64,000 nt of DNA from Verrucomicrobiota bacterium. Its GTDB lineage: Bacteria > Verrucomicrobiota > Verrucomicrobiia > Opitutales > Opitutaceae. This document shows, piece after piece, positions 3,164 to 15,224 of this stretch. Every line of letters begins with the position of its first letter. Position 1 is the stretch's first letter. The notes under the pieces were generated by a model. It searched no databases. It worked only from the letters and a program-made list of their open reading frames with translations, and was not told the DNA's origin. The DNA lies in assembly GCA_030604905.1 (NCBI GenBank), contig JAUVVA010000005.1, positions 1 through 64,000 on the forward strand, given 5' to 3'. Both the position numbers and the translations under genes were made by a program.

Positions 3164-5233
3164 CTACTCCACGAGGGCGACGCCGTTGGGCTCGAGCTCA
3201 AGCGCGCCACCGGGTGCGAGCTCGCGCTCGCCCAGCCACTCGCGTTTCGCCCCGGCGGGCAGGGGCACGCTCACGGGCTCCTCGCGGTGGTTGATCATCA
3301 CGCGCAGCAGGCGTCCGTCGCGGCGCACCCGCTCCACCACCTCCACGCCGGGCGTGGTCGAGACCGGCAGGGGCAGCGCGCCGAGGCGGCCGAGGAGCGG
3401 CAGGAGCGCCTCGGTGAAGGCGCGCGTGAGATAGGTGCCGACGTAGAGCACCTGGCCCTGACCCAGCGCGCGGCGCGTGATGGCGGGCGAGCCGGCGAGG
3501 TGGCGCGTGGTCCAGCGTGCGACGACCTCCGTGCCCGCGGCGGCGTCGGGCGCGAGCTGTTCATACCAGAGCGTGGTCGGCGTGTCGGTATCGGCGCCGT
3601 CGATACGCAGCGCGAGCGGACGGCGCTCGGGCTTGTTCTGCCGGCCGTATTCCTCGACGCTCGCGCCGACGAGGGCGCGCAGGCAAGCGGGCAGGATGTC
3701 GGGCACCACGTTGCTGCGCAGGTCGCGCGAGGCCGTGCGCGCGCCGACGACCAGCGTGCCGCCCTCGCGGACAAACTTTTCCAGGGCCGGCACCCAGGCG
3801 GGATCGAAAATCGCGAAGTGGGGAATGACGTAGAGCTTCAGCCCGGCGAGCGCGTCGGCCGGATGCACGACGCCGACGGCATGGCCGGCGCGGTAGAAGA
3901 CACCGTGCGTCTCCCAAGCCATGTGCTTGGGCGAGGGCAGGCCGTGCGAGATCGGCTCGTGGCCGTGCTCGACGGAGAAATCGCAGCCCGCGATGGCGAC
4001 GTCGATCCGCACGGTCGAGCCGAGCAGCTCGCGGCCGACGCGGGCGAGCTCGGCGCCCAGCCGGGCGGCCTCGCGGTAGCGGCGGCGCGGGACGTTGTCG
4101 TGGTCGAGGATGCCCTCCCAGTATTCCTCGGCGCCGAAGCGGCAGGAGCGCTCGCGGAAGAAGAGCAGGCCGTCGGCGCCGCGGGCGATGCTCGTCCAGG
4201 CCATGCGGCGCATCTCGCCGGGCTCGGGCTTGTCGTGGAAGTAGTTGCCCTGGCCGCCCGCGCCCGACTGGTGCTCGAGCATGAGGAAGTGGCCGGAGTA
4301 GCCGCGGGTCAGGTCGAGGTTGAAGGCGTGGCCGGCGGCGCGGGTGGCGGGATCGTAGTCGAAGAGCGGATACGAATCGTAGCCGAGAAAATCGAGGTCG
4401 CGCGTGAAGTCGCCGCGGAAGTCGATCGATGGGAAGCAGCCGTTGTGGGTGACGAACCAGCGCGGCTGCGTGGCGCGGAGGATCTCGACCTGGTCGCGCT
4501 GGAAGACGGTGACACCGTCGGAGAGGAAGCGGTGGTAGTCGAGCCAGTGGGCGGGGTTGGCGTAGGTCGGGCGCCAGTTGCGCGGGAGCACGACGTCCTC
4601 GAAGCGCTCGTAGGTGTTGGCCCAGAAGGCGGTGCCCCAGGCGCGGTTGAGCGCGCCGATATCGCCGCCAAAGCGGGCGCGGAGCCACTCGTGCCAGGCG
4701 GTCTCGGCGGCGGCGCTGTAGTCCTCGCGGAAGTGGCAGTGGAACTCGTTGTCGGTCTGCCAGCCGATCACGTGCGGGTTGTCGCGGTAGTGCTCGGCCA
4801 TGGCTCGCGTGATCTTGCGCGAGTAGTCGCGGTAGAGCGCGCTGAAGTGGCTGGCGTGCTGGCGGGAGCCGTGCTCGAGGCGGCGGCCGTCGGCGTCGAC
4901 CCGCAGCACCTCGGGGTGGTCACGGGTCAGCCAGCGCGGTGGCGTGGCGGTGGGCGTGCAGAGGATGCTGCGGATGCCGACCGCGCCGAAGCGGGCGATG
5001 GTCTCGTCGAAGAGGGAGAAGTCGAAGACGCCCTCGCGCGGCTCCATCAGGTCCCAGGCAAACTCGGCCATGCGGATCACGTTCCAGCCGGCGGCCTTGA
5101 AGAGGGCGGGGTCGCCGGCGCGGATCTCGGCGTCCCAGTGCTCGGGGTAGTAGGGCGAGCCGTAGAGAAACTCGCCCAGCGCGGCGGGGCGGAGGTGCGA
5201 GAGGGGGGCGGAGGACGCGGAAGGGGAGGCCAT
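3164..5233 (-). CDS. GH42 beta-galactosidase
   Basis: This 689-residue protein matches glycoside hydrolase family 42 over its full length. The TIM-barrel start is FLYGSPYYPEHWD, near residue 22. The acid/base glutamate is E163 in WQTDNEFHCHF, and the likely nucleophile is E320 in GHFLMLEHQSG. The segment LVVGARTASRDLRSNVVPD belongs to the glutaminase-like trimerisation domain near residue 500, followed by the small C-terminal beta domain. No signal peptide is visible, so it probably acts in the cytoplasm on imported galacto-oligosaccharides. It is divergent from an AraC-family regulator; the two annotated start codons overlap inside one CCATGG palindrome. Substrate control by that regulator is inferred from position only. 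Confidence 0.93.
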   Translation of the reverse strand: MASPSASSAPLSHLRPAALGEFLYGSPYYPEHWDAEIRAGDPALFKAAGWNVIRMAEFAWDLMEPREGVFDFSLFDETIARFGAVGIRSILCTPTATPPRWLTRDHPEVLRVDADGRRLEHGSRQHASHFSALYRDYSRKITRAMAEHYRDNPHVIGWQTDNEFHCHFREDYSAAAETAWHEWLRARFGGDIGALNRAWGTAFWANTYERFEDVVLPRNWRPTYANPAHWLDYHRFLSDGVTVFQRDQVEILRATQPRWFVTHNGCFPSIDFRGDFTRDLDFLGYDSYPLFDYDPATRAAGHAFNLDLTRGYSGHFLMLEHQSGAGGQGNYFHDKPEPGEMRRMAWTSIARGADGLLFFRERSCRFGAEEYWEGILDHDNVPRRRYREAARLGAELARVGRELLGSTVRIDVAIAGCDFSVEHGHEPISHGLPSPKHMAWETHGVFYRAGHAVGVVHPADALAGLKLYVIPHFAIFDPAWVPALEKFVREGGTLVVGARTASRDLRSNVVPDILPACLRALVGASVEEYGRQNKPERRPLALRIDGADTDTPTTLWYEQLAPDAAAGTEVVARWTTRHLAGSPAITRRALGQGQVLYVGTYLTRAFTEALLPLLGRLGALPLPVSTTPGVEVVERVRRDGRLLRVMINHREEPVSVPLPAGAKREWLGERELAPGGALELEPNGVALVE

Positions 5234-6200
5234 GGGCGGGTTGATGGATGTGACCGATGCTTTGGCTGGAGCTTCCGCTAGGCGAGAGCTAGAGCTTGAT
5301 GGCCATGCCCAAAAAATTGACGAAAGTGCCCGGAAAAAGGATCCCGGGCATCATCGTCTCTGGGCGGAGCTGAGAGGGGATTCGCGGCTGGAGTCGCTGC
5401 GCATCGCCGCGCTGGGCTGGGTGCCGCGCAAGGTGGAGCGGGTGACCGGGGTGCAGGAGCGCTTTTCCCTCTGTGTGTTGCGCGCGGGCTCGGCCGGCAC
5501 TTACCGGGAGGCGGGTGAGTCGGCGCCGCGACGCGTGCGCGGGCCGGGCGTGTTTTTTGTGTGGCCGGGCGGCAGGCAGGATTACGGGCCGGCGGCGCGG
5601 GCGGATCGCTGGGAGGAGTTTTATTTCACCGTCGAGGGCGAGCGCGCGGCCGAGTGGTTGAAGGCGGGGTGGTGGGGCGGCGAAGCGAGGTTCTGGCCGG
5701 TGGAGGAGGCGGCGGTGGACGAGGCGTGGCGGCTTTTCCAAGCGGGCTGCGAGGCGCTGGAGCGGCGCGATGGGCGGGCGCTGGATCGGTTGAAGCTGGC
5801 CTTGGAGCGATGGCTGGCGGAGGGGCCCTGGGCGGCGGCGGCGAGCGGGCCGCGGCCGGGTGATACGCGGGTCGGCCGGGTGGTGGAGGCGTGGCGGCGC
5901 GATCTTGCGCGGGCCTGGTCGCTGCGGGAAAGCGCGCGGGCGGCGGGGATGAGCTACACGCGGTTTCGCGCGAGGTTTGTGGAGGAGTTGGGGCGCAGCC
6001 CGCACGCGCACCTCACGCGCCTGCGCCTGGAACTGGCGCGGCGCTGGCTGCGCGCGACCGAGGAACCGGTGAAGGCGGTGGCGCAGCGCTGCGGTTTTCC
6101 GCGGGTGGAGACCTTTATCCGGGCTTTCGCCAAGGCGCACGGCGCGCCGCCCGCACGCTGGCGGGCGGAGCAGGCGGCGAAGCGAAAAACCCGCGCGTAA
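5232..6200 (+). CDS. AraC-family transcriptional regulator (N-terminus uncertain, possible frameshift)
   Basis: The C-terminal hundred residues form the two helix-turn-helix motifs of AraC regulators: SLRESARAAGMSYTRFRARF, then VKAVAQRCGFPRVETFIRAF. The upstream part resembles a cupin-type sensor domain (FSLCVLRAGSAGTYREAG). The N-terminal 45 residues in this frame look unlike protein. Another frame, from ATG 5299 or 5305, reads MPKKLTKVPGKRIPGIIVSG and stops at TGA 5371, exactly where the good sequence RGDSRLESLRIAALGWV starts in the annotated frame. One extra base near 5365-5370 would join the two. The real start is therefore probably 5299 or 5305, with a frameshift or sequence error. It is divergent from the GH42 gene, its likely target. 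Confidence 0.8.
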   Translation: MGGLMDVTDALAGASARRELELDGHAQKIDESARKKDPGHHRLWAELRGDSRLESLRIAALGWVPRKVERVTGVQERFSLCVLRAGSAGTYREAGESAPRRVRGPGVFFVWPGGRQDYGPAARADRWEEFYFTVEGERAAEWLKAGWWGGEARFWPVEEAAVDEAWRLFQAGCEALERRDGRALDRLKLALERWLAEGPWAAAASGPRPGDTRVGRVVEAWRRDLARAWSLRESARAAGMSYTRFRARFVEELGRSPHAHLTRLRLELARRWLRATEEPVKAVAQRCGFPRVETFIRAFAKAHGAPPARWRAEQAAKRKTRA

Positions 6201-9281: not shown

Positions 9282-10898
9282 GTGCCCACCCTGAATTGGA
9301 TTGGTAAGGACGCGGTGGTAAACCATCACCACGCGGTCCCGTTTTATTTGCTGCGCGACGTGCCCGCGCTTGCCTGCGGCGAGCCGGGTGAAGGCAACTT
9401 GATCGTGCAGGGCGACAACCTCGTCGCGCTCAAGGCCCTGCTGCCCTACTACGCCGGGCGGGTGAAGTGCATCTTCATTGATCCGCCCTACAACACCGGC
9501 AACGAGGGCTGGGCCTACAACGACAACGTCAACAGCCCCGAGATTCGCGCTTGGCTCGGCAAGGTAGTCGGAAAGGAAGGCGAAACGTTGGACCGCCACG
9601 ACCGCTGGCTCTGCATGATGTATCCGCGGCTGGTTTTGCTGCGGCAGTTTCTGAGGGACGACGGGGTAATCTTTGTGAGCCTTGATGACAACGAGACCCA
9701 CGCGTTCCGGTTCTTGATCGGAGAAATTTTTCGCGACAAAAACTTCGTTACGACAATTGCCTGGCAAAGGCGCACATCGCCAGACGCTCGTCTGGGGCTT
9801 AGTCCTGCGCACGACCACATCACAGTCTTCGCAAAGAACGTAGAGAAGTTGATTTTTCAGCGTGTTCCGCTGGCGCTGGGAAAGTCGGCGGCGTTCAAAA
9901 ATCCAGATAACGATCCACGGGGAGCGTGGACATCGACAGATTTTACGGCGCAAGGCTGGCGACCGAATCAGATGTATAAGATTCGCACTCCGGGTGGCGC
10001 CGAATACGAGCCTCCGCCCGGTCGATGCTGGGGGAACATCGAGTCAGAGTTTCGACGTCTGCTTCAGGAGGGACGCATGTGGTTTGGTCGGAATGGGCGT
10101 TCGCGGCCTCGCGTGAAAACCTACCTGGCGGAGAGTGAGGGCGTAAGTGCATGGACGTGGTGGTCGAATGAGGAAGCCGGTCACAACCAAGAGGCGCGAA
10201 AAGAGCTGAATGATATCTTCGCGAATGAATCGGTCTTCGATACCCCCAAGCCCACCCGTCTTCTCGAGCGCATTCTCCAAATCGCCACTAAACCGGGTGA
10301 CTTGGTCCTCGATTCGTTCGCGGGCTCCGGCACGACGGCGCATGCGGTCCTAAAGCTAAACGCCGCGCAGCCGGACCAACCGCCGCGCCGCTGCATCCTC
10401 GTCGAGATGGATCAGAAAATCGCTCGCGAGGTCACGGCGGAGCGCGTGCGTCGCGTGGCGCAGGGCTACACGAATGCGAAGGGCGAGACCGTGCCCGGGC
10501 TCGGCGGCGGTTTTCGTTTTTGCGAGCTGGACGAGCCGCTTTACGACGAGGCGGGGCACATCCGGCCGGCGGTGAAATTCGCCGAGCTGGCGCGGCACAT
10601 CTACTTCGTCGAGACGGGCGAGCCGCTGCCGCGCGAACGTGTGCCCACCACGCCACTGCTCGGCGTGCACAAGGGGCGCGCCGTCTGCCTGCTCTACAAC
10701 GGCATCCTCAAGGACCGTTCGCCCGAGGGCGGCAACGCGCTCACCCACGAATCGCTGGCCCTGCTGCGCGAGGCCGCGGCGGGCCGCTCCTTCGAGCGCA
10801 TGGTCGTCTACGGCACCTCGCGGCGCCTCAGTCCGGCGCGGCTCCAGCGCGAGGGCATCACGTTTAAACAAATCCCCTACACTCTCCGCACCGCATGA
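9282..10898 (+). CDS. mod: Type III restriction-modification methyltransferase (Mod)
   Basis: The 538-residue protein opens with LNWIGKDAVVNHHHAVPFYL, typical of type III Mod subunits. The adenine methyltransferase motif DPPYNTGNEGW (DPPY at residues 67-70) precedes the AdoMet motif DSFAGSGTT (residues 344-352), the order of beta-class N6-adenine enzymes. The segment between them, about residues 140-320, is the target-recognition region and is clearly lower in GC than the flanks. Mod recognises and methylates the asymmetric site and is needed for cleavage by Res. The start is GTG 9282, behind a hairpin; an upstream start is not available with a recognisable ribosome-binding site. It overlaps res by four bases (ATGA). 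Confidence 0.93.
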   Translation: MPTLNWIGKDAVVNHHHAVPFYLLRDVPALACGEPGEGNLIVQGDNLVALKALLPYYAGRVKCIFIDPPYNTGNEGWAYNDNVNSPEIRAWLGKVVGKEGETLDRHDRWLCMMYPRLVLLRQFLRDDGVIFVSLDDNETHAFRFLIGEIFRDKNFVTTIAWQRRTSPDARLGLSPAHDHITVFAKNVEKLIFQRVPLALGKSAAFKNPDNDPRGAWTSTDFTAQGWRPNQMYKIRTPGGAEYEPPPGRCWGNIESEFRRLLQEGRMWFGRNGRSRPRVKTYLAESEGVSAWTWWSNEEAGHNQEARKELNDIFANESVFDTPKPTRLLERILQIATKPGDLVLDSFAGSGTTAHAVLKLNAAQPDQPPRRCILVEMDQKIAREVTAERVRRVAQGYTNAKGETVPGLGGGFRFCELDEPLYDEAGHIRPAVKFAELARHIYFVETGEPLPRERVPTTPLLGVHKGRAVCLLYNGILKDRSPEGGNALTHESLALLREAAAGRSFERMVVYGTSRRLSPARLQREGITFKQIPYTLRTA

Positions 10899-13564
10899 GC
10901 AGCGACCGCTACGGCCATAAAGATTACCAAAACAAGACGCTCGAATCGCTCGCGCGCTACCTGCGGCGCTGTCGCGAGACGGGCGATCCGGCGCGCAGCT
11001 TTCTCGAGGTGACGGCGCAGCTCTGGGGCGCGGCGCATCCCTATCACCCGATCACGGGGCTGCCTCCGGGCGAGAGCTTCCCCGCCGACATGCCCTTCGT
11101 TTGCCTGCGCGTGCCGACCGGCGGCGGCAAGACGGTGATCGCGGCGCGAGCGCTTCGCGTGGCACGAGAGGCCCTGCTCGACACCGAGCATCCGCTGGCG
11201 CTCTGGCTGGTGCCAAGCGACGCGATCCGAGCGCAGACTTTGGCGGCGATGCGTGACCGAGACCATCCCTTGCGGCAACTGCTCGATGAGGAGCTGGGTG
11301 TGGTGGAGATCCTCGATGGCGACGACGCATTGCAGGTGAGCCCCGCCACCCTGAGTGGCGCGGCGACGATCATCGTGGCCACTATCCAGGCTTTTCGCGT
11401 GGAGAAGACCGAGGGGCGCAAGGTTTACGCGAACAACGGCGCTTTGATGGACCACTTCACGCACATCCCGCGCGAGACGAAGGTGCGTTTCCCCGCGGGC
11501 TTTCCCCACTCGCTGGCCAACGTGCTTCGGCTACGGCGTCCGCTGGTGGTGGTGGACGAGGCGCACAACGCGCGTTCGCCGCTGAGCATGACGGTGCTGG
11601 AGCGCTTCCGGCCACGAGCGATCCTTGAGTTTACCGCCACGCCCGAGACGGAGAAAAATCCGAGCAATGTGCTGCACAGCGTGTCGGCGGCGGAGTTGAA
11701 GGCCGAGGACATGGTGAAGCTCCCCATCGTGTTGGAGGCGCAGACGGGGTTTAAGGAGATCGTCGCGAGCGCCATCGCCATGCGCGGCGAGCTGGAAAAA
11801 GAGGCCGCGGCGGAGCGCGAGGCGACGGGTGAATACATCCGCCCCATTCTGCTCTTGCAGGCGGAGCCGCGCGATCAGGCGCGGCCCGACGCGCTGACGG
11901 TGGAGGTGGTCGAGAAGGCCTTGCGCGAGGAGCATCACGTCCCGGAGGAGCAGATCGTGGTGGCCACGGGCGAGCGGCGCGGATTGGAGGGCGTGGACCT
12001 GAACGCGGAGAGCTGCGCGGTCCGCTACGTGATCACGCAGTCCGCGCTCAAGGAGGGTTGGGATTGCCCGTTCGCGTATGTGCTTTGTTCGGTCGCGCCC
12101 CTGCGCAGCGCGACGGCAGTGGAGCAGCTGCTCGGGCGCGTGCTGCGCATGCCGAAGGCGAGGAAGAAGGCGCGTCCGATGCTCAACCGCGCCTACGCTT
12201 ATGTGCGCTCGCCGCATTTCTTCGCGGCGGCCGAGGCGCTGCGCGATCAGTTGGTGAAGAACTCCGGCTTCGACCGGCGCGAGGCGCGGGAGTTTTTCGC
12301 ACCGAGCAAGCCGGTGCAGACGGAGGTCGCCGCGCTGGTGCGGGCCGACCTGCGGCGGAGAGTGAAGATCACGCTGCCGGAGCCGCTGGCGCTGGCCGAG
12401 CTGCCGGAGGCGGTGCGGGAATTTGTCGTGAGTGCGGAGGATGGCGCGCGCACGCTCACCTTGACCGGGGCGCCGAGCAAGGCGGAGACGGAGGCCTTGG
12501 TCGCCCGGGCCGCGAGCGAGGAGGCGAAGGAGATCCTGCGCGGCGCGCTGGCCGAGCTGGCCGCGCACGAGCGGGTGATGCTGGCCCCGGCGGAGCGCGG
12601 CGAGCGCTTCGAGGTGCCGCAGATGATGCTGGAACTGAATGGCGAGCTGGTGCGCCCCGACGAGGCCGAGTGGCTGGAGGCGGGCTGGCGTCTGCCCCTG
12701 CCGCCGGGCGAGCAGGACGCGCCTGCGCTCGATGCGCCGCGGCCCGAGGACACGGTGGGCCTGGTGGACGTGGAGGATGGCAAGGTGGTGACGCGCCAGA
12801 TGCCGGAGCTCGCGCGCGAGCTGCAACTCATCGAGACGCAGGAAAACTGGACGCAGGCGCGGCTGGTGGCGTGGCTGGACCGAAACATCCCGCACGACGA
12901 CATCGACCCGCAGGAGGCCTGCGCCTACCTCGATGGCGTGGTGTCGGCACTGCTCAGGCAGCACACGCTGGGGCGCTTGGTGCGCGAGCGTTTCGAGCTA
13001 AGGCGGCGGATCGAGGCTCGGGTGGCCGAGCTGCGGAAGCTCGCGCGTCGGCACGAGTATCAGCGGGTGCTTTTCAATGCGGAGCAGGGTGGGGATGCGG
13101 CGCGCCGCGTGCGGGTGCGCGTGGGCGAGGGGCATGTGTTTGCCTACGATCCCGACACCTATCCCTGCCGCGAGGTCTGCAAGCGGAGCCGCGAGTTCAC
13201 GAAGCACTTCTATGAAAACGTCGGGGAGCTGGCGGAGGAGGGTGCGGAGTATCGCTGCGCGCGGTTCCTTGACGGGCTGCCCGAAGTGAAGTGGTGGGTG
13301 CGAAATCTGGAGCGCCATCCGGCGCATTCGTTTTGGCTCCAGACGAGCACGGACCGATTTTACCCGGACTTCGTGTGCCAGCTCGATGATGGTCGTGTAT
13401 TGGTGGTTGAATACAAAGGCGGCGACCGCAGCACGAACGAGGATTCGCAGGAGAAGAAGCGGCTGGGCGAGCTGTGGGCGGCGCGCAGCGGAGGCAAGGG
13501 GCTCTTCACTATGCCGGTGGACGGCGACTATTCGGATATTCTGCGGCTGGTGCGGGGTGGCTGA
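10895..13564 (+). CDS. res: Type III restriction endonuclease, Res subunit
   Basis: This 889-residue helicase-nuclease has Walker A VPTGGGKT at residues 73-80 and the DEAH box at 221-224 (VVVDEAHNARS). Helicase C-terminal motifs follow around VEQLLGRVLRMPKARKK. The C-terminal PD-(D/E)xK nuclease core reads FYPDF (D825) and then VVEYKGG (E839, K841). All residues needed for ATP-dependent translocation and cleavage appear intact, so the system looks functional. The ATG overlaps the mod stop codon, indicating translational coupling. The adjacent HipA-family gene on the opposite strand and the lower GC of the mod recognition region suggest an acquired defence island. Confidence 0.93.
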   Translation: MSSDRYGHKDYQNKTLESLARYLRRCRETGDPARSFLEVTAQLWGAAHPYHPITGLPPGESFPADMPFVCLRVPTGGGKTVIAARALRVAREALLDTEHPLALWLVPSDAIRAQTLAAMRDRDHPLRQLLDEELGVVEILDGDDALQVSPATLSGAATIIVATIQAFRVEKTEGRKVYANNGALMDHFTHIPRETKVRFPAGFPHSLANVLRLRRPLVVVDEAHNARSPLSMTVLERFRPRAILEFTATPETEKNPSNVLHSVSAAELKAEDMVKLPIVLEAQTGFKEIVASAIAMRGELEKEAAAEREATGEYIRPILLLQAEPRDQARPDALTVEVVEKALREEHHVPEEQIVVATGERRGLEGVDLNAESCAVRYVITQSALKEGWDCPFAYVLCSVAPLRSATAVEQLLGRVLRMPKARKKARPMLNRAYAYVRSPHFFAAAEALRDQLVKNSGFDRREAREFFAPSKPVQTEVAALVRADLRRRVKITLPEPLALAELPEAVREFVVSAEDGARTLTLTGAPSKAETEALVARAASEEAKEILRGALAELAAHERVMLAPAERGERFEVPQMMLELNGELVRPDEAEWLEAGWRLPLPPGEQDAPALDAPRPEDTVGLVDVEDGKVVTRQMPELARELQLIETQENWTQARLVAWLDRNIPHDDIDPQEACAYLDGVVSALLRQHTLGRLVRERFELRRRIEARVAELRKLARRHEYQRVLFNAEQGGDAARRVRVRVGEGHVFAYDPDTYPCREVCKRSREFTKHFYENVGELAEEGAEYRCARFLDGLPEVKWWVRNLERHPAHSFWLQTSTDRFYPDFVCQLDDGRVLVVEYKGGDRSTNEDSQEKKRLGELWAARSGGKGLFTMPVDGDYSDILRLVRGG

Positions 13565-13605: not shown

Positions 13606-15009
13606 TTACCCGAAGCGCTCGCGGAGGGTGCGGAGGGCGGAGAGGGCGACGGCGGCGTGGGGGCGAAAGCCGTCCGAGACGCGGATGTCCGCCTCGGCGC
13701 GTTCCCAAAAACGCTCCGCCAGCGTCGCCGCCTCGGGCCAAAGCGCCAGCTCCTGCGGCAGGGGCGCGGGCGGGGTGAACACGGGTGCGGGCGAGGCTTC
13801 CCCGGGACGCGGAGCCCAGAGCATGGGCAGCATGTCGTAGGCGGGCGCGAGGCTCAGCGGGAGCTCCGGCTTCAGGTAAAAGGCAAGGTTGCCGAAATGC
13901 ATGTCGGTGTTGCCGATCAGGCGGCCGAAAAGCCGGCGCAGTCGCACGGCGCGCAGGTCCGCCTCGCCGATCCAGCCGCGCGCGTGCAGGCCGGCGGCGG
14001 CCTCGGCCCAGTCGTTGGTGTCGGCGCCGGAAAAGCCGGCATCGTGTAGTGCGCGCAAGGATACGAGTCCGCGGCGGCCGTGCGCGCCCACGCGGTCGAA
14101 GCGCGGCAGCTCGTAGAAACGGCGGCCGCCGAAATCGAAGGTCCGGGGCGGTTCCACCCCGGCGCCCGCTTGCGCGGCCCCGCTCAGCACTTCCAGCGCG
14201 AGGGCCTCGGCGACGAGCAGGTCGGCCCAGCGGCGGCCGGTGGGCGTGTCGAGCCGGTCGGTGAACTTCACCAGCATGCCGAAGACCTGATCCTCGGCGG
14301 AGGTCCGCAGCCAGGTGGTGAACTTGGGTTGCTCGCCCTCGACGGAGGAGCCGACGGGGTCGCCTAGGCTGGCCCGCGCGGCCAGCTCGGGGTAGCGCGC
14401 GGCGCGCGTTTCGGGCGTGACGGGGTCGGGCACGGCGGCGTTGAGCGCGCGCCCGGTAGGGCCATCGCCAAGAGTGAGGTTGCCCGGCAAGTCGTCCCCG
14501 TGTTCGCGCAGGTAAAAGAGGGTCTGGTCGTCGCTCCAGTCGCGCGGGTCGGTGGGCAGTCCAAGCGTGGCGGGCAAGCGGCGGGCGATTGCCCGGCCAA
14601 GAAAACCCTGCGGCCGCAGGTCGGTGAGAAAAAAGGGCAGCCCCTCGCAAAACCCGGCGTGGTCGTGGACCAAGCCGGCCCATTCTGGGCGCTCGGTAGG
14701 CGATGCCCATTCCAGGCGCCAGCCGCCATGCAGCGCGGTGAGTTGGCACCACTCGTGCGCGATGCCGGTCTCGTTGAAGCGCGAGATGCGATGGGAGCTC
14801 AGCTGCCCAAACACGGCGCGACGCAGGGCGTAACGGGTGGCGCGGGTCTTGCCGAGCTGGACCACCGCCGGGCCGAGTGTCCGCAGGGCGCGCTGCACCG
14901 TGACCCGGTCCGAAGCTACGCGGTCGGCCAAGGCTTGCGCACTCAGCACGCCACCGCTCTGCAGAAGCAGAGTAAGCCGGGCGGGATCAAGTTGTGCAGG
15001 ACGAGCCAC
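13606..15009 (-). CDS. HipA-family serine/threonine kinase, YjjJ-like, with fused winged-helix domain
   Basis: The 467-residue protein begins with a winged helix-turn-helix (about residues 7-55: LLLQSGGVLSAQALADRVAS, SDRVTVQRALRTLG). A HipA-like kinase follows. GSSVEGEQPKF (219-229) matches the phosphate-binding, autophosphorylated loop. K248 in MLVKFTD fits the ATP-binding lysine, and NTDMHFGNLAFY supplies catalytic D369 and N374. APAYDML gives the metal-binding aspartate D392. This fusion architecture is that of E. coli YjjJ (HipH), a HipA-family toxin. No separate HipB gene is adjacent, consistent with the fused DNA-binding domain acting in cis. GTG 15009 is the start, only 11 bp from the first iteron of an AT-rich control region. 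It converges with res. Confidence 0.85.
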   Translation of the reverse strand: MARPAQLDPARLTLLLQSGGVLSAQALADRVASDRVTVQRALRTLGPAVVQLGKTRATRYALRRAVFGQLSSHRISRFNETGIAHEWCQLTALHGGWRLEWASPTERPEWAGLVHDHAGFCEGLPFFLTDLRPQGFLGRAIARRLPATLGLPTDPRDWSDDQTLFYLREHGDDLPGNLTLGDGPTGRALNAAVPDPVTPETRAARYPELAARASLGDPVGSSVEGEQPKFTTWLRTSAEDQVFGMLVKFTDRLDTPTGRRWADLLVAEALALEVLSGAAQAGAGVEPPRTFDFGGRRFYELPRFDRVGAHGRRGLVSLRALHDAGFSGADTNDWAEAAAGLHARGWIGEADLRAVRLRRLFGRLIGNTDMHFGNLAFYLKPELPLSLAPAYDMLPMLWAPRPGEASPAPVFTPPAPLPQELALWPEAATLAERFWERAEADIRVSDGFRPHAAVALSALRTLRERFG

Positions 15010-15019
15010 ACAGGGCAGT

Positions 15020-15113
15020 ATTATGAACAGATATTTTAGGGAAAGATAAAAAGTAACGCGTTTAAATACAGATATTAAAGAATGGTAACTGGCTGATTAT
15101 GAACAGATATTTT
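15020..15113 (-). promoter_or_regulatory. AT-rich iteron region upstream of the YjjJ-like gene
   Basis: An 18-bp sequence, ATTATGAACAGATATTTT, occurs perfectly at 15020-15037 and at 15096-15113. The core ACAGATATT also occurs a third time at 15068-15076. The cores start at 15027, 15068 and 15103, giving spacings of 41 and 35 bp. The region is far more AT-rich than the rest of the window and directly precedes the HipA-family start codon, so it probably holds the promoter and operators bound by the winged-helix domain (inference). Confidence 0.7.
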
Positions 15114-15193: not shown

Positions 15194-15224
15194 AAAAAGC
15201 CGCGCCCGGGTGGGGCGCGGCTTT
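15194..15224 (-). terminator. Intrinsic terminator of gnd
   Basis: AAAGCCGCGCC (15196-15206) and GGCGCGGCTTT (15214-15224) form an 11-bp stem with a seven-base loop. On the minus strand the stem is followed by a T run (A15194-15198 on the plus strand). It lies about 70 bp past the gnd stop codon. Confidence 0.85.

What the first reader, a model, noticed from the sequence alone, without database searches (positions are those of the whole stretch)
13606..15113. Stand-alone YjjJ-like HipA kinase with an iteron control region next to a restriction system
The gene has intact HipA kinase residues, a fused winged helix and no separate antitoxin. It is preceded by an AT-rich region with two identical 18-bp repeats plus a third core (ACAGATATT). 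This looks like an autoregulated single-gene toxin-antitoxin or an abortive-infection partner of the type III system.
Basis: partly seen in the sequence, partly recalled or inferred. Interest (0 to 1): 0.6.

Follow-up and report, generated by a model that had tools for sequence, protein, structure and literature searches.

The report
Lone toxin kinase reads own operator
The gene is an ordinary YjjJ/HipH toxin kinase, but the repeats in front of it prove to be a control site found in front of YjjJ genes across at least three bacterial phyla, E. coli included, and they change in step with the protein's own DNA-reading helix, so this lone toxin very probably regulates itself.

Summary
Window 13606-15009 (-) encodes a 467-aa YjjJ/HipH kinase (NCBIfam equivalog, 425.7 bits, cut-off 401). 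It is preceded by two identical 18-bp repeats, and ACAGATATT occurs 3 times in the window against 0.02 expected.

The repeats are not local. In 122 YjjJ genes, including E. coli K-12, an EM motif wATC[TG][AG]T[TG]C[AG] occurs about 2.9 times upstream, in the gene's orientation. The commonest variant, ATCTATTCA, occurs 94 times in 21.6 kb upstream against 6 in 924 kb of flanks. Sites lie 11-12, 65-67 or 76-78 bp apart (best period about 11 bp), although the DNA between them is not conserved.

The site bases co-vary with residues 34-36, the start of the recognition helix of a confidently modelled winged helix. Gln35 goes with A at base 5 (70/70). Arg35 goes with G at base 4 or 5 (31/35, against 4/79 without Arg). 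Independent-pairs tests on a kinase-only tree give p=0.004 and 0.016.

I conclude that the repeats are the protein's own operator; autorepression and looping are inferred. The link to the type III restriction system is not supported. A published ChIP-exo study found no YjjJ binding in E. coli, so the operator needs a bench test.

The parts
13606..15009 (-). yjjJ/hipH: 467-aa HipA-family Ser/Thr kinase with an N-terminal winged helix
   Evidence: NCBIfam NF007297 425.7 bits over cut-off 401; Pfam HipA_C; model pLDDT 91.3, best PDB matches HipA
14821..14985 (-). winged-helix domain, residues 9-63
   Evidence: helices 9-19, 24-31, 35-44 and strands 49-52, 59-63 in the model
14902..14910 (-). codons of residues 34-36 (Asp-Arg-Val), start of the recognition helix; the residues that co-vary with the operator
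   Evidence: helix start
14320..14352 (-). Gly-rich loop with conserved serines, GSSVEGEQPKF (residues 220-230)
   Evidence: alignments A1 and A2
13888..13911 (-). catalytic loop NTDMHFGN with D369
   Evidence: D369 invariant in A1 and A2
13831..13839 (-). Mg-binding YDM with D392
   Evidence: D392 invariant in A1 and A2
15020..15037 (-). proximal operator site (18-bp repeat; core ATCTGTTCA at 15024-15032); the core ends about 15 nt before the start codon
   Evidence: family-wide motif
15096..15113 (-). distal operator site (identical 18-bp repeat; core 15100-15108), 76 bp from the proximal site
   Evidence: spacing class 76-78 bp in the family
15068..15076 (-). third, partial core (ATCTGT only), out of the 11-bp register; probably a weak site or none
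15196..15224 (-). perfect 12-bp inverted repeat followed by T's: likely terminator of gnd, separating it from yjjJ
   Evidence: (inverted repeat), sequence; the terminator scan did not list it, so this is a reading of the sequence

Best explanation
The gene is a member of the YjjJ/HipH family: a HipA-type kinase toxin that has no antitoxin gene and carries its own winged helix. The upstream repeats are the operator of that winged helix. Each site is a 9-bp, non-palindromic ATCnnnnCA-type sequence in the gene's orientation. One or two sites lie against the promoter and start codon, and one or two lie six to eight helical turns upstream, so that all sit on about the same face of the DNA. The start of the recognition helix (residues 34-36) reads the variable bases. 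Most likely several HipH molecules bind the array together, probably looping the DNA, and repress their own promoter, so that toxin level is held low by feedback in place of an antitoxin gene. Shown by computation: family membership, the array, its orientation and spacing, and the protein-DNA co-variation. Inferred: physical binding, repression, looping and any signal that relieves it.
For: Equivalog match and confident wHTH plus kinase model. Array present upstream of YjjJ genes from Verrucomicrobiota to E. coli. ATCTATTCA: 94 upstream on the gene strand and 2 on the other, against 6 and 0 in 924 kb of flanks. EM motif, about 2.9 sites per gene in 122 genes. Distances 11-12, 65-67, 76-78, 87-89 bp, period 10.9-11.0, R 0.65, n 322, with unconserved spacers. 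Best co-varying columns of 414: residue 35 for site bases 4 and 5, residue 34 for base 7, also after down-weighting relatives. Q35 with A5 70/70, S34 with T7 83/83. Independent pairs on a kinase-only tree: about 9:0, p=0.004, and 7:0, p=0.016. The tandem site occurs at only one place in each of seven genomes. Literature: E. coli hipH is regulated at its promoter region, and HipH needs its HTH for toxicity and localises to the nucleoid (PMC11452175).
Against: ChIP-exo of C-terminally myc-tagged YjjJ in E. coli K-12 found no binding sites (PMC8464067). No consensus sigma-70 promoter was found in the window, so the overlap with the promoter rests on position and on modest -10-like enrichment in relatives. 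8 of 122 genes had no called site, though some of these show other repeats. Distance and co-variation statistics come from related sequences; only the independent-pairs tests correct for that, and the S34/T7 pairing did not reach significance there (p=0.125). Nothing here separates repression from activation.
Confidence: 0.82

Rival explanations
1. Another regulator, not YjjJ, owns the sites, and the gene is simply one of its targets.
For: ChIP-exo found no YjjJ binding in E. coli (PMC8464067).
Against: Site bases track the YjjJ recognition helix better than any other of 414 columns. In seven genomes the tandem site occurs at only one place, as expected of a self-operator. The motif varies between clades while staying at yjjJ.
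Confidence: 0.06
2. The array is HipH's operator, but HipH activates its own gene or acts through a signal such as c-di-GMP, so the feedback is positive or conditional rather than plain repression.
For: In E. coli c-di-GMP raises hipH expression through its promoter region and binds HipH (PMC11452175). Distal sites could be activator sites.
Against: Proximal sites lie about 15 nt from the start codon in the window and at or over the likely -10 in relatives, which favours occlusion. c-di-GMP could equally act by relieving repression.
Confidence: 0.15
3. Stand-alone abortive-infection partner of the neighbouring type III restriction system.
For: mod and res are adjacent and match PADLOC type III models.
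Against: gnd-yjjJ without mod/res in the two nearest relatives; no Mod relative in any other YjjJ locus held; in G005 the Mod relative lies on another contig; neighbours of 41 YjjJ loci mostly housekeeping; no exact operator copies near mod/res.
Confidence: 0.03
4. The repeats are replication iterons or chance AT-rich repeats.
For: Direct repeats in AT-rich DNA are typical of plasmid origins.
Against: gnd, kinase and res next door, no replication gene among the neighbours tested. 94 against 6 occurrences and co-variation with YjjJ exclude chance.
Confidence: 0.01

Closest known systems
YjjJ/HipH of E. coli K-12 (HipA-kinase clade X; PMC8262856, PMC9948734, PMC11452175)
   Same: Same architecture, single gene without antitoxin, 35% identical to the window protein; its upstream region carries four ATCTATTCA sites in the same orientation, 65, 12 and 12 bp apart.
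   Different: Different clade-specific site (ATCTGTTCA in the window) matched by a different recognition-helix start (DRV against SQA). The operator is not described in the papers found.
HipBA autoregulation (HipB operator TATCCN8GGATA; PMC3376134)
   Same: A Hip kinase gene with DNA sites in its promoter region; HipA is the closest solved fold.
   Different: No HipB. The DNA-binding domain is fused to the kinase, and the sites are short direct repeats in one orientation, not palindromes.
HipBST (HipT; PMC10627512)
   Same: Related kinase core.
   Different: Three genes with a separate HipS antitoxin and HipB; none here.
Plasmid iterons
   Same: Phased direct repeats near a gene for a DNA-binding protein.
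   Different: No replication gene or origin context; the sites belong to a kinase gene.

Membership tests
YjjJ/HipH (clade X HipA-like kinase) | Scores above the curated equivalog cut-off | tested here: met
   NF007297 425.7 bits, cut-off 401
YjjJ/HipH (clade X HipA-like kinase) | Kinase motifs (Gly-rich loop with serines, catalytic D, Mg-binding D) intact | tested here: met
   D369 and D392 invariant
YjjJ/HipH (clade X HipA-like kinase) | N-terminal HTH domain | tested here: met
   winged helix in a model with pLDDT 91
YjjJ/HipH (clade X HipA-like kinase) | Single gene without linked antitoxin | tested here: met
   flanked by convergent res and by gnd; no plausible small antitoxin ORF upstream
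YjjJ/HipH (clade X HipA-like kinase) | Kinase activity and toxicity on overexpression | not testable with these tools
   reported for the E. coli protein only (PMC9948734)
Type II toxin-antitoxin module | Adjacent protein antitoxin gene | tested here: not met
HipBA operator | Palindromic TATCCN8GGATA sites | tested here: not met
   sites are one-orientation ATCnnnnCA direct repeats
Self-regulated operator of the fused winged helix | Sites present, oriented and spaced alike across the family | tested here: met
Self-regulated operator of the fused winged helix | Recognition helix co-varies with site bases | tested here: met
Self-regulated operator of the fused winged helix | Protein binds the sites and alters its own transcription | not testable with these tools
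   only contrary datum: ChIP-exo without peaks (PMC8464067)
Type III restriction-linked defence partner | Conserved linkage of yjjJ with mod/res | tested here: not met
Plasmid iteron origin | Replication initiator gene next to the repeats | tested here: not met
   neighbours are kinase, gnd and res

The most novel reading that the evidence does not exclude
The phased operator array is more than a repression site: bound and looped operator DNA acts as the missing antitoxin by holding HipH molecules in an inactive assembly, and a signal (for instance c-di-GMP or autophosphorylation) both releases the promoter and frees active toxin.
Probability: 0.12. Interest if true: 0.85.

Novelty: new variant of a known kind. 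Interest (0 to 1): 0.62.

Why it matters
HipH is a Hip kinase without an antitoxin gene, and the authors of the Hip tree wrote that how its activity is controlled is unknown (PMC8262856). A conserved operator that co-varies with the protein's own helix gives a concrete answer at the level of transcription. It questions the reading of YjjJ as a protein without a DNA-binding domain (PMC8464067). It also offers a physical site for the promoter-level c-di-GMP effect reported in E. coli (PMC11452175). The base code (Gln with A, Arg with G) makes the claim testable with single residue and base swaps in a laboratory strain.

Tried and rejected
Partner of the type III system: rejected. Operator sites elsewhere in the genome: the other exact ATCTGTTCA copies are single and scattered, and the fourth ACAGATATT is in an intergenic repeat. 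Inverted-repeat operator: inverted 8-mers exceed shuffles only mildly (9 of 108 regions at p<=0.01, against 46 for direct repeats). AT-matched windows from the same loci also showed repeated 8-mers fairly often (144 of 324), so I did not rely on that test and used motif counts, spacing and co-variation instead. Rfam: no match. Consensus promoter in the window: none. Phage records with a YjjJ relative: none. The 2017 YjjJ paper (Maeda et al.) did not turn up in the library, so whether it mentions the repeats was not checked.

Full report
1. What is there. The gene at 13606-15009 (-) starts at GTG 15009, the first possible start in its frame. The 104 bp between it and 15113 are the repeat region. 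Two 18-bp repeats (15020-15037, 15096-15113) are identical, and ACAGATATT occurs a third time at 15068-15076. The window holds 3 copies against 0.02 expected, and the whole 4.19 Mb assembly 4. The fourth lies in a CACAGATGG-type intergenic repeat. On the gene strand the core is ATCTGTTCA; the two copies are 76 bp apart, and the proximal one ends about 15 nt before the start codon. A perfect 12-bp inverted repeat followed by T's (15196-15224) probably ends the upstream gnd gene. That is my reading of the sequence, since the terminator scan did not list it.

2. The protein. NCBIfam calls it YjjJ (425.7 bits, cut-off 401), and Pfam finds HipA_C. D369 and D392, conserved lysines and the Gly-rich loop are kept in alignments of 21 and 32 relatives. 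The model (pLDDT 91.3, pTM 0.89) has a winged helix: helices 9-19, 24-31, 35-44, then two strands. Its best PDB matches are HipA structures. This is clade X, renamed HipH, of the published Hip tree, whose authors wrote that control of the kinase is unknown (PMC8262856).

3. The repeats belong to the family. Upstream regions of relatives in the same bacterial family showed paired direct repeats of drifting sequence in the same place. E. coli K-12 yjjJ has four ATCTATTCA copies at -101, -36, -24 and -12. A genome scan gave 80 named loci from Opitutia, Akkermansiaceae, Lysobacterales, Burkholderiales, Enterobacterales, Desulfuromonadia and others. Over 108 distinct genes ATCTATTCA occurs 94 times on the gene strand in the 200 nt upstream (21.6 kb), 2 times on the other strand, and 6 and 0 times in 924 kb of flanks. 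ATCGTTTCA is 20 against 3. With 122 genes, an EM model converged on wATC[TG][AG]T[TG]C[AG], about 2.9 sites per gene. It was started from ATCTATTCA, so it is a refinement, not a blind discovery; a count of longest exact repeats without the model gives the same spacings.

4. Spacing. Site-to-site distances pile up at 11-12, 22-24, 65-67, 76-78 and 87-89 bp; the best period is 10.9-11.0 bp (R 0.65, n 322). Spacers of equal length are hardly more alike than shuffled ones (median identity 0.28-0.38 against 0.27-0.31). Two E. coli alleles keep 65/12/12 bp spacing with unrelated spacers. The pairs are not phylogenetically independent, so I quote no p-value. The window's third core breaks the register and is probably not a full site.

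5. Who reads the sites. Mutual information between site bases and 414 protein columns puts residue 35 first for bases 4 and 5 and residue 34 first for base 7; residues 35, 36 and 34 are the top three for base 5. After down-weighting relatives (effective n 64) the top column for each base is unchanged. These residues start the recognition helix. Gln35 goes with A5 in 70 of 70 genes; Ser34 with T7 in 83 of 83. Arg35 has G at base 4 or 5 in 31 of 35, other residues in 4 of 79. On a tree of the kinase part alone, independent pairs give about 9:0 (p=0.004) for Gln35/A5 and 7:0 (p=0.016) for Arg35/G. The two tests overlap, and Ser34/T7 was not significant (p=0.125). Gln with A and Arg with G are the classical pairings of HTH proteins (own knowledge). 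Genes without called sites include one with a degenerate helix (L160) and some with other repeats.

6. Scope. In seven genomes the tandem site occurs at only one place, and in the window's genome only yjjJ has two ATCTGTTCA copies. So the regulon is probably the gene itself.

7. The restriction system. mod and res are type III genes by PADLOC models. The two nearest relatives (L066 74%, L067 67% identical) keep gnd-yjjJ without them, and no other YjjJ locus held encodes a relative of this Mod. The 82 nearest neighbours of 41 loci give only isolated defence-model hits and mostly housekeeping families. In G005 the best Mod relative lies on another contig than yjjJ. The adjacency looks incidental.

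8. Mechanism and doubt. Position near the start codon, with -10-like enrichment at the site edge in relatives, suggests repression; phasing suggests cooperative binding or a loop. Both are inference. The main contrary evidence is ChIP-exo without YjjJ peaks, with a C-terminal tag and growth in glucose minimal medium (PMC8464067). Low expression of a repressed toxin could explain it, but that is untested. A 2024 study reports promoter-level control by c-di-GMP, c-di-GMP binding, a need for the HTH in toxicity, and DNase activity (PMC11452175); another reports kinase activity (PMC9948734). I take no side on the DNase claim. I found no paper that describes the operator, within an open-access library in which the 2017 YjjJ paper did not turn up.

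9. Verdict. Family: already known. The self-coded operator array: apparently undescribed, well supported by comparison, and cheap to test. New variant of a known kind.

Noticed in passing
L146 (NZ_CP025881.1) 4938-5035; L147: These E. coli strains have lost yjjJ between deoD and lplA but keep its iterons, in front of a small opposite-strand HTH (pseudo)gene. Of 5,426 E. coli genomes 5,221 match the iteron segment, but only 1,362 match 80% or more of the region into the yjjJ start.
   Followed up: partly
L148 (NZ_KX880944.1) 3948-5290: IncY (P1-like) E. coli plasmids carry a yjjJ about 35% identical to the K-12 gene, with two ATCTATTCA sites 12 bp apart in front of it.
   Followed up: partly
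L001 1490-1520 (own genome, contig C114): A CACAGATGG-type intergenic repeat accounts for the only other ACAGATATT in the genome.
   Followed up: no
window 9282-13564: Type III mod and res overlap by 4 bp and look intact by length and family match; res ends 41 bp before the convergent yjjJ stop.
   Followed up: partly
L162 and L026 upstream regions: Two YjjJ genes without called sites carry other repeats (TTCTAGACA; AAAGCGTAAA), perhaps further site classes.
   Followed up: no
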